Shown here one piece after another: positions 250 through 2,989 of a stretch of DNA of 64,000 nt. Source of the stretch: Nitrosococcus halophilus Nc 4 (lineage in GTDB: Bacteria; Pseudomonadota; Gammaproteobacteria; Nitrosococcales; Nitrosococcaceae); assembly GCF_000024725.1 (NCBI RefSeq), contig NC_013960.1, positions 372,001 through 436,000 on the forward strand. The letters are read 5' to 3'. Each line of letters opens with the position of its first letter. The first letter of the stretch is position 1. The position numbers and the translations under genes were made by a program. The notes beneath the pieces are model-generated. The model made no database searches, had not been told where the DNA came from, and saw only the letters and a program-made list of their open reading frames with translations.

Positions 250-310
250 CCCTCGCCGCTCCGCGTATAAACACATGGCTGAAGCCCCGGCAGCCTTGCT
301 CCGCAATAGA

Positions 311-592
311 TCACTGTCAACTACCCCCCCTAATCGCAAAGCGATCTAGTGGGGGCTTGTAAAAGCAGGCCAGTTGACCAGCTTGAGTGCTTTGGGCACT
401 ACGACAGAGCGGCGATCACACCCTGGAATGCGCGAGCCAGTTCCAGGCTCTGTGGAGCGTTATCATGCTGCGGCGAGGGGTAAACCGCGAAGGTGGCGTT
501 CTTAACAACCCGCTTTGTCTTTAGCGAGGCTCACGTTACCGGCATTAGTCGAGCGGCAGGTAACTGCCAGATTTTAGTCAACGGAGAAACCG
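311..592 (+). ncRNA. Putative omega-RNA region upstream of iscB
   Basis: IscB proteins work with a structured RNA encoded directly 5' of the gene; its guide is taken from DNA just outside the left end of the element. This 280-bp stretch has no convincing gene and is rich in foldable sequence. A closing stem pairs 316-321 (gtcaac) with 373-378 (gttgac). Inside it a strong hairpin pairs the C-run, CTA and ATCGC of about 324-337 with GCGAT, TAG and the G-run of about 341-355 around an AAA loop. More GC-rich hairpin-forming sequence follows up to the iscB ribosome-binding site. If the layout follows known systems, the guide would be the roughly 16 nt before about 311-316. The exact ends are inferred. 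Confidence 0.65.
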
Positions 593-1969
593 ATGGGCGT
601 TTTCGTACTCGACAAAAACAGACAACCCTTGATGCCTTGCCAACCGGCTCGGGCACGCAAGCTGTTGCGCGAGGGCAAAGCCGCTGTGTTTCGCTGTTAT
701 CCATTCACCATTATTTTAAAGGAGCGAGCAGGTGGCACAACGCAACCCATTTCCTTGACGGTTGACCCCGGCTCAAAAACCACAGGCATCTCCCTGAATG
801 CGCAATTTAACTCCGGCACTGTCTGTATCTTTGCGATGCAACTTGAGCATCGGGGCCGGCAAATTAAAGAATCTCTGGACTCTCGCCGAGGCGTTCGACG
901 TTCACGCAGAAACCGCAATACCCGTTATCGCCAACCCCGTTTTCTCAACCGTAGCCGCCCTAAAGGCTGGCTACCCCCCTCCTTGCTTTCTCGGGTTGAT
1001 AATACCGAGACCTGGGCAGAACGATTGGTACGATTGGCCCCGATCTGCTCAGCAAACGTTGAGATTGCGCGGTTTGATCTACAGTTGCTGGAAAACCCGG
1101 ATATAACTGGTATTGAGTATCAACAGGGAACCCTGTACGGATTTGAATTGCGGGAATATCTGCTGGCCCGCCATCAACACACCTGTGCTTATTGCCATGG
1201 CTTATCTAAAGACTCTATCCTGGAGATCGAACATATCTTGCCAAAAAGCCTGGGCGGTACTGATCGAGTGGGCAATCTGGTGGTTGCCTGCCGCACCTGC
1301 AACCAGCACAAAAACAACCTTCACCCTCAAGCCTGGGCGGATGCCTGCAGGAAGCGTAAAAACAAATTAGAGCAGCAACGCAGCCTTGCCATGCGAGCAA
1401 TTCTCAAAGGGCACCGTCCGACCCTGAAAGATGCCGCAGCGGTCAATGCCACCCGCTATGCCGTGGGACGTGTCATCAAGCAACTGATACCGGATATCCG
1501 CTTTTGCAGTGGCGGTCAAACCAAACGAAACCGCACCCTGCAAGGTTACCCCAAAGCACATTGGATTGATGCCGCCTGTGTAGGCGAGCAGGGCCAGCAG
1601 GTACGCCTGGAGTGCTCAGGGTATCTACAGGTTTCAGCCAAGGGACATGGAGCGCGGCAGCAGTGTCGTATGGACAAATATGGATTTCCGCGTACCAGTG
1701 CCAAAGCAGCTCGAACGGTGCAGGGTTTCCGAACCGGAGACATTGTAGAGGCCCGAGTACCAACAGGTAAAAAGGCAGGTCACTATATCGGTCGGGTGGC
1801 GGTACGCAGCAGTGGTTTTTTTAACATTACCAGCCAGAGGATCGTAACTCAGGGTATTAGCTATCAATATTGCCGCACCCTGCATCGATGCGATGGTTAT
1901 GGTTATGGTTATGTCATTGACACTCAGATAGCGAGCACACAACAGGAGGATGCGGGAGAAGCCGCCTGA
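593..1969 (+). CDS. iscB: IscB RNA-guided HNH/RuvC endonuclease
   Basis: This is the Cas9-ancestor nuclease of IS200/IS605-type elements (458 aa). The domains run in the expected order. The PLMP domain is at the N-terminus (QPLMP, 11-15). RuvC-I follows (VDPGSKTTG, D58), then an Arg-rich bridge helix (about 98-122) and RuvC-II (NVEIARFD, E157). The HNH domain lies at about 198-240 with the CAYC and CRTC pairs and catalytic H214 in EIEHILP. RuvC-III is KAHWIDAACVG (H323, D326). All expected catalytic residues are present, so it reads as active. The start is ATG 593 behind an ACGGAGA ribosome-binding site. The upstream structured region is the likely omega-RNA. By family knowledge the protein makes guide-directed double-strand cuts, probably to help retain the element. 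Confidence 0.95.
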   Translation: MGVFVLDKNRQPLMPCQPARARKLLREGKAAVFRCYPFTIILKERAGGTTQPISLTVDPGSKTTGISLNAQFNSGTVCIFAMQLEHRGRQIKESLDSRRGVRRSRRNRNTRYRQPRFLNRSRPKGWLPPSLLSRVDNTETWAERLVRLAPICSANVEIARFDLQLLENPDITGIEYQQGTLYGFELREYLLARHQHTCAYCHGLSKDSILEIEHILPKSLGGTDRVGNLVVACRTCNQHKNNLHPQAWADACRKRKNKLEQQRSLAMRAILKGHRPTLKDAAAVNATRYAVGRVIKQLIPDIRFCSGGQTKRNRTLQGYPKAHWIDAACVGEQGQQVRLECSGYLQVSAKGHGARQQCRMDKYGFPRTSAKAARTVQGFRTGDIVEARVPTGKKAGHYIGRVAVRSSGFFNITSQRIVTQGISYQYCRTLHRCDGYGYGYVIDTQIASTQQEDAGEAA

Positions 1970-1986
1970 CGGCGGGCGCTATCCCT

Positions 1987-2016
1987 CTCCACCCAAATCA
2001 AAGATTATGGGTGGAG
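1987..2016 (+). repeat. Right-end hairpin of the IscB element
   Basis: A perfect 9-bp stem (CTCCACCCA at 1987-1995 against TGGGTGGAG at 2008-2016) encloses a 12-nt AT-rich loop. No T-run follows, so it is a poor intrinsic terminator. Subterminal hairpins at the right end are typical recognition structures for IS200/IS605-type elements. Confidence 0.55.
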
Positions 2017-2032
2017 TATCCCGCGCAATTTG

Positions 2033-2989
2033 ATGAAACTCATCGTTCAAATTCCCTGTTACAACGAAGAACAAACCCTGCCGGAGACCATCGCCGACAT
2101 CCCGAGGGAGATAGCGGGCGTGGATGTGGTGGAGATCCTGGTCATCGATGACGGCAGCAGCGACCGAACCGCGGCGGTGGCCGAGTCCCTAGGGGTAGAC
2201 CATATCCTCCATAACAACCACAATATCGGCCTGGCCAGGACCTTCCGCCGGGGCATCGACGCCGCCTTGAAGGCCGGCGCCGACATCATCGTCAACACCG
2301 ACGGGGACAACCAGTACGTGGGGCAGGATATTCCGAAACTGATCCAGCCTATCCTGGAGGGCCGCGCGGATATGGTGGTGGGCGATCGGGAGACCGCCAA
2401 AATCGACCACTTCTCCATCGGCAAGAAATTTCTGCAATGGCTAGGCAGCGCCGTGGTGCGTAGGCTTGCCGGCATTTATGTGCCGGACGCCGTCAGCGGG
2501 TTTCGGGCCTTCTCCCGGGAAACGGCCATCCGCCTCAATATCGTCACCTCCTTCAGCTACACCATTGAGAGCATCATCCAGGCCGGCAAGCGCCAGATGG
2601 TCGTCACCTCGGTACCGGTACGCACCAACCCCAAGAATCGGGAGTCCCGCCTGTTTCAGAGCATCCCCGCCTTTGTTCAGAACTCGATGTGGACCATGTT
2701 GCGGACGTACGCTATGTACCAACCGCTGCGGGCGTTTTTCTTCATCGGCACGGTCCTGTCGGTGCTGGGGGCGATTCCCATCGTTCGTTTTCTCTATTTC
2801 TATCTGATCGGGCAAAGTGAAGGACACATCCAGTCCTTGGTGCTCGGTGGCGTGTTCTTGATGATGGGGTTTCTGGCCTATTTGGTGGGACTGGTGGCCG
2901 AGCTGATTTCCATCAACCGGCAACTGTTGGAGATGACGCTGGAGCGGGTGCGGCGGATGGAACTCGAGCAAAAGCGTGGCGACGACTAA
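2033..2989 (+). CDS. GT2 family glycosyltransferase with C-terminal membrane segments (DPM1/ArnC-like)
   Basis: The N-terminal 220 residues form a GT-A fold of family GT2. It opens with IVQIPCYNEEQTLPETI, continues with EILVIDDGSSDRT and carries a metal-binding DGD in NTDGDNQY near residue 93. Two hydrophobic segments follow at about 234-258 and 268-292, as in polyprenyl-phosphate sugar synthases that work at the cytoplasmic face of the inner membrane. It probably loads a sugar on to a lipid carrier or extends a surface glycan; donor and acceptor are unknown. A TTG one codon upstream is possible, but the ATG at 2033 is preferred. The next gene starts inside its last codons. The IscB element ends directly upstream, so its native promoter may be lost. 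Confidence 0.85.
   Translation: MKLIVQIPCYNEEQTLPETIADIPREIAGVDVVEILVIDDGSSDRTAAVAESLGVDHILHNNHNIGLARTFRRGIDAALKAGADIIVNTDGDNQYVGQDIPKLIQPILEGRADMVVGDRETAKIDHFSIGKKFLQWLGSAVVRRLAGIYVPDAVSGFRAFSRETAIRLNIVTSFSYTIESIIQAGKRQMVVTSVPVRTNPKNRESRLFQSIPAFVQNSMWTMLRTYAMYQPLRAFFFIGTVLSVLGAIPIVRFLYFYLIGQSEGHIQSLVLGGVFLMMGFLAYLVGLVAELISINRQLLEMTLERVRRMELEQKRGDD

What the first reader, a model, noticed from the sequence alone, without database searches (positions are those of the whole stretch)
311..2022. Complete-looking IscB and omega-RNA unit
All catalytic residues (D58, E157, H214, H323, D326), the PLMP domain, zinc cysteines and a structured 5' RNA region with a closing stem (316-321/373-378) are intact. 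Such units are programmable nucleases of the Cas9 ancestor type. The guide predicted from position would be the roughly 16 nt before about 311-316.
Basis: partly seen in the sequence, partly recalled or inferred. Interest (0 to 1): 0.65.

Follow-up and report, generated by a model that had tools for sequence, protein, structure and literature searches.

The report
Intact IscB nuclease with guide RNA
This is a complete copy of a known kind of jumping gene that carries a small Cas9-like, RNA-guided DNA cutter and its guide RNA; comparison with relatives fixes its ends, guide and neighbour motif, and shows that it sits directly in front of the start codon of the next gene.

Summary
Window 316-539 is a HEARO/omega-RNA (Rfam RF02033, 118 bits, cut-off 83). 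593-1969 is an intact 458-aa IscB with catalytic residues and zinc cysteines almost invariant among 39 relatives. The element is most likely 316-2032 (1717 bp); the proposed 311-2022 is slightly off at both ends. The left border is the first omega-RNA base, as shown by ten sister copies in the same genome and by natural empty sites of relatives in sister species and Pseudomonas plasmids. The right border is placed before the ATGA at 2033, from a right-end pattern shared with 22 relatives, two of them with natural empty sites. Predicted target: TCCGCAATAGATCACT (300-315) followed by ATGA(AA). This copy's own empty site was not found, because its flanks are not conserved in the genus. The ATGA is the start codon of a glycosyltransferase gene. 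About ten of 23 such elements abut a start codon, and in six the IscB stop codon borrows the A of that ATG. No transposase is encoded in cis. A sister IscB lineage in the same genome shows a different motif (NNGG). New member of a known kind; the start-codon placement is suggestive only.

The parts
300..315 (+). predicted guide, TCCGCAATAGATCACT, in the left flank outside the element
   Evidence: 16 nt next to the omega-RNA start; border shown for relatives; no second exact site in the genome
316..539 (+). omega-RNA (HEARO) scaffold; its first base is the left border of the element
   Evidence: Rfam RF02033, 118 bits, model 1-211; covariation
593..1969 (+). iscB, 458 aa, PLMP + RuvC + bridge helix + HNH
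1987..2016 (+). right-end hairpin
   Evidence: DNA fold -20.4 kcal/mol over 1960-2040, z -4.33
2017..2032 (+). right terminus TATCCCGCGCAATTTG; 2032 is the predicted last base of the element
   Evidence: pattern shared with relatives; two of them have natural empty sites
2033..2038 (+). predicted TAM ATGAAA in the right flank, also the start codon of the next gene
   Evidence: 20 of 23 loci have ATGA and 3 have ATGG here
2033..2989 (+). family 2 glycosyltransferase gene abutted by the element
   Evidence: Pfam PF00535
22..249 (+). 3' end of the 742-aa upstream gene, oligosaccharyltransferase-like by inspection
   Evidence: ORF L056:4021-6249

Best explanation
Window 316-2032 is an intact, non-autonomous IS200/IS605-type element made of an omega-RNA gene and iscB. 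It inserted without target duplication between an oligosaccharyltransferase-like gene and a glycosyltransferase gene, directly 5' of an ATGA that is the glycosyltransferase start codon. A transcript entering from the left flank would carry the 16 nt of flank as guide, followed by the omega-RNA body. IscB would bind it and cut double-stranded DNA that matches the guide and is followed by ATGA, which is the unoccupied insertion site; this favours keeping or recopying the element. Shown: the parts, the RNA structure, the conserved active sites and, for relatives, the exact borders. Inferred: this copy's right border and TAM, expression, cleavage, and mobilisation by a TnpA acting in trans.
For: HEARO hit; IscB domains and conserved residues; covariation; identical left borders with nine different flanks in sister copies; empty sites of relatives; shared right end followed by ATGA or ATGG; DtIsrB prefers NTGA and OgeuIscB uses a 16-17-nt guide (PMC9581776; PMC9640706).
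Against: No empty site for this copy. Single copy, no transposase in cis, and no transposase in the genome with matching ends was found. The right-end comparison was aligned by eye, and nothing here measures RNA or activity.
Confidence: 0.88

Rival explanations
1. An immobile, decaying copy: it looks intact but is no longer expressed, active or mobile.
For: Single copy and no transposase in cis; no expression data.
Against: Full-length ORF, conserved active sites, complete HEARO model; several sister-lineage copies in the same genome are visibly broken, this one is not.
Confidence: 0.2
2. A fixed, domesticated unit that serves the host, for example by influencing the glycosyltransferase gene behind it.
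For: Placement exactly at the start codon, a pattern seen in about ten of 23 relatives, six of them with overlapping stop and start codons.
Against: Nuclease residues are kept; neighbours differ from relative to relative; no conservation of this locus in the genus.
Confidence: 0.07
3. The right border and motif are different: for example the element ends earlier, near 2022, and the motif is NNGG as in the sister lineage.
For: The sister lineage in the same genome has NNGG; no direct empty site for this copy.
Against: The window groups with ATGA relatives and shares their right terminus; two members of the ATGA group have confirmed borders.
Confidence: 0.08

Closest known systems
IscB-omega-RNA (OMEGA) systems, e.g. 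OgeuIscB (PDB 7xht, 7utn) and TbaIscB (PDB 9k30)
   Same: PLMP, split RuvC, bridge helix, HNH; omega-RNA upstream with a 5' guide
   Different: Predicted TAM ATGA instead of NNRR as in OgeuIscB; smaller protein; not tested biochemically
HEARO RNA, Rfam RF02033
   Same: Full model matched above the cut-off
   Different: One longer first hairpin; otherwise a standard member
IscB of Geoalkalibacter subterraneus plasmid pGSUB1 (WP_040202914.1)
   Same: 58% protein identity, same RNA and right-end type, ATGA
   Different: ATGA there is not an annotated start codon
Sister IscB lineage in the same genome (L058-L068)
   Same: Same architecture, 52-53% protein identity, omega-RNA start equals element border
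   Different: Multi-copy, weaker HEARO score (36-63 bits), other right end, motif NNGG
DtIsrB (PMC9581776)
   Same: TAM NTGA
   Different: IsrB lacks the HNH domain, which is present here

Membership tests
IscB (OMEGA) | PLMP, RuvC I-III, arginine-rich bridge helix and HNH with catalytic residues | tested here: met
IscB (OMEGA) | omega-RNA (HEARO) directly upstream | tested here: met
IscB (OMEGA) | guide encoded in the flank next to the omega-RNA, at the element border | tested here: inconclusive
   Shown for sister and plasmid relatives; this copy's own empty site not found
IscB (OMEGA) | RNA-guided cleavage next to a TAM | not testable with these tools
   needs biochemistry
IS200/IS605-type element | insertion without target duplication at a short motif | tested here: inconclusive
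   Exact joins for L058 and L175; one extra ATGA in L176; not testable for the window copy
IS200/IS605-type element | subterminal hairpin at the right end | tested here: met
IS200/IS605-type element | TnpA (Y1) in the same element | tested here: not met
   Y1 transposases lie elsewhere in the genome, none in or next to the element; hence called non-autonomous
IsrB | no HNH domain | tested here: not met
   HNH present
Cas9 (type II CRISPR) | large protein with REC lobe | tested here: not met
   458 aa with IscB-like layout
Cas9 (type II CRISPR) | CRISPR array and cas1/cas2 nearby | not tested
   no dedicated search was made

The most novel reading that the evidence does not exclude
In the ATGA clade the motif and insertion point coincide with gene start codons more often than avoidance of coding sequence explains. 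The element then becomes the new upstream cistron of its target gene: it supplies the last bases before the start codon, and in some members the IscB stop codon overlaps that start (TG|ATG). IscB would be translationally coupled to, or able to affect, the gene whose start it occupies.
Probability: 0.25. Interest if true: 0.6.

Novelty: new member of a known kind. Interest (0 to 1): 0.35.

Why it matters
It turns a sequence-only guess into exact, testable predictions: borders 316 and 2032, guide TCCGCAATAGATCACT, TAM ATGA. One genome holds two related IscB lineages with different predicted motifs (ATGA and NNGG), and natural empty sites exist for relatives of both, a useful setting for asking how motif specificity changes. 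If the start-codon pattern held on a larger set, it would say how such elements insert with little harm and whether they influence the genes behind them.

Tried and rejected
(1) Joined-flank search for this copy's empty site in 58 relatives: none; the one outside match (G016, 39 bp, E 3.5e-4) lies in coding sequence that reads like pheS and is taken as chance. (2) Guide search in the own genome with up to 3 mismatches: no second exact site, and near-matches do not exceed the reversed-pattern control. (3) Linking the element to a transposase in the genome by DNA similarity of their ends: nothing convincing. (4) The idea that sister copy L068 keeps an open frame across an inserted repeat: the repeat contains an in-frame stop. 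(5) L175 was first counted as a start-codon insertion; the uninterrupted plasmid shows that its ATG is internal to the native gene. (6) Confirming the genome's identity through its plasmid: no match, such records may be left out. (8) The original HEARO, ISC and OMEGA papers are not held, so whether the ATGA/start-codon placement was noted before is unresolved.

Full report
What is there. The ORF at 593-1969 is a 458-aa IscB. Pfam gives RRXRR at 241 bits plus three HNH models. The best-matching solved proteins are IscBs, TbaIscB first, with OgeuIscB among the next. In an alignment of 39 IscBs made here D58 and H214 are invariant, E157, H323 and D326 are kept in 38, C198, C201 and C236 are invariant, and C233 is kept in 36. 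Upstream, 316-539 is a full-length Rfam HEARO hit of 118 bits against a cut-off of 83, the only hit above cut-off in the 64-kb window. RNAalifold on 17 relatives predicts 44 pairs, 31 of them with changes on both sides that keep the pair.

Where the element begins. The genome holds 11 further HEARO matches and a sister IscB lineage, 52-53% identical to the window protein. Ten left ends of that lineage begin with GTTGAG, the omega-RNA start, behind nine different flanks; two copies share a flank because of a local duplication. One of these insertions (L058) is absent from three congeneric genomes; the join is ...GAGTTATT|AGGGTA when occupied, and ...GAATTATT|AGGGTA in the closest empty site, with no duplication and no loss. 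Elements with the window's type of RNA and right end behave the same. L175, on a Pseudomonas plasmid, has empty sites reading ...GAGCGA|ATGAAG. L176 has empty sites reading ...GGT|ATGAATGAC, with one extra ATGA in the occupied plasmid; repeat slippage is the simplest reading, a 4-bp duplication the alternative. The left border of the window element is thus taken as 315|316, and the guide as the 16 nt before it; OgeuIscB uses a 16-17-nt guide (PMC9640706).

Where it ends. Relatives have, after iscB, a hairpin and a terminus resembling GGTWTCYCGCG...TG, followed at once by ATGA (20 of 23 loci, window included) or ATGG (3 of 23). The two cyanobacterial loci L164 and L165 lack the CGCG part. I aligned these by eye, so the counts carry selection; in the printout the window row is shifted by one base. 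The two plasmid empty sites confirm the border before ATGA independently of that alignment. In the window the terminus is AGTATCCCGCGCAATTTG (2015-2032), followed by ATGAAA. The element is therefore 316-2032, 1717 bp. DtIsrB prefers NTGA (PMC9581776), which agrees. The sister lineage is followed by NNGG in nine of ten copies from four genomes. In the tree the window groups with L116, L150 and L115 (support 0.91-0.94), next to the NNGG lineage (joint support 0.998).

The start-codon pattern. The ATGA at 2033 begins a family 2 glycosyltransferase whose domain starts within six residues. Neighbours placed the same way include an etfB-like gene (L054), a recJ-like gene (L153), parB (L169), a DUF4400 gene (L170), an OmpW gene (L174) and a nuclease-related gene (L176). 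For L176 the uninterrupted plasmid is annotated with its start exactly there. The etfB and recJ names are my reading of the translated starts, not search results. In L117, L153, L170, L171, L173 and L174 the IscB stop TGA is made of the element's TG and the A of the target ATG. About 10 of 23 loci abut a start codon once L175 is removed; L175's ATG proved internal to the native gene. In 40 kb of one annotated plasmid 11 of 71 non-disruptive ATGA sites (15%) are starts, and 10 of 24 would have a binomial P of about 0.002. The set is small and hand-picked with one control region, and most annotated starts were called after insertion, so I regard the pattern as suggestive only.

How it most likely works. 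From published OMEGA biology: transcription entering from the left copies the flank as guide, IscB binds the RNA, and the complex cuts unoccupied sites reading TCCGCAATAGATCACT followed by ATGA, which favours retention of the element. Retention by cutting the empty site is inferred here from my knowledge of TnpB and IscB work. No TnpA lies in the element. Published surveys also find HEARO nucleases only rarely with TnpA (PMC9755519). The genome has Y1 transposases, but none with matching ends was found. The single copy leaves present mobility open.

Genome identity. The contig sizes of 4,079,427 and 65,833 bases, and those of the relatives, suggest Nitrosococcus halophilus to me from memory. 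No tool confirmed this.

Verdict. An ordinary but complete and now closely delimited IscB-omega-RNA unit. The additions of interest are the placement at an ATGA start codon and the coexistence of two motif types in one genome.

Noticed in passing
G000:C2 loci L057-L068, L120 (G001), L121 (G003): A multi-copy sister IscB lineage, 430-aa open frames, some copies almost identical, with nine different natural guides; some copies keep the omega-RNA but have a truncated or missing iscB (L057, L065, L066).
   Followed up: partly
G000:C2:1870000-1917500 (L064, L065, L066): Three IscB copies bound what looks like a roughly 21-kb tandem duplication; the middle copy combines the left flank of one with the right side of another, as expected from recombination between copies.
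   Followed up: partly
L068:2741-2840, L060:2518-2609, L049:532-634, L066:1286-1377: A roughly 95-bp palindromic repeat (TACCAATTT...AAATTGGTA), inserted at the same point of two different iscB copies; in L060 a further 1.3-kb insertion lies within it.
   Followed up: partly
right flanks of L058-L068, L120, L121, L151, L157 versus window 2033: Two related IscB lineages in one genome have different right-flank motifs, NNGG and ATGA.
   Followed up: yes
L117, L153, L170, L171, L173, L174: The IscB stop codon is completed by the A of the target ATG, giving TGATG overlap with the downstream reading frame.
   Followed up: partly
G000:C2:1461652-1461995 (L149): The flanks of the G003 IscB copy are found in the own genome with about 60 bp missing around the insertion point, so it is not a clean empty site.
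   Followed up: no
L116:2597-2672: A group II intron match (Rfam RF00029, minus strand) lies just upstream of the omega-RNA on the Oceanisphaera plasmid.
   Followed up: no
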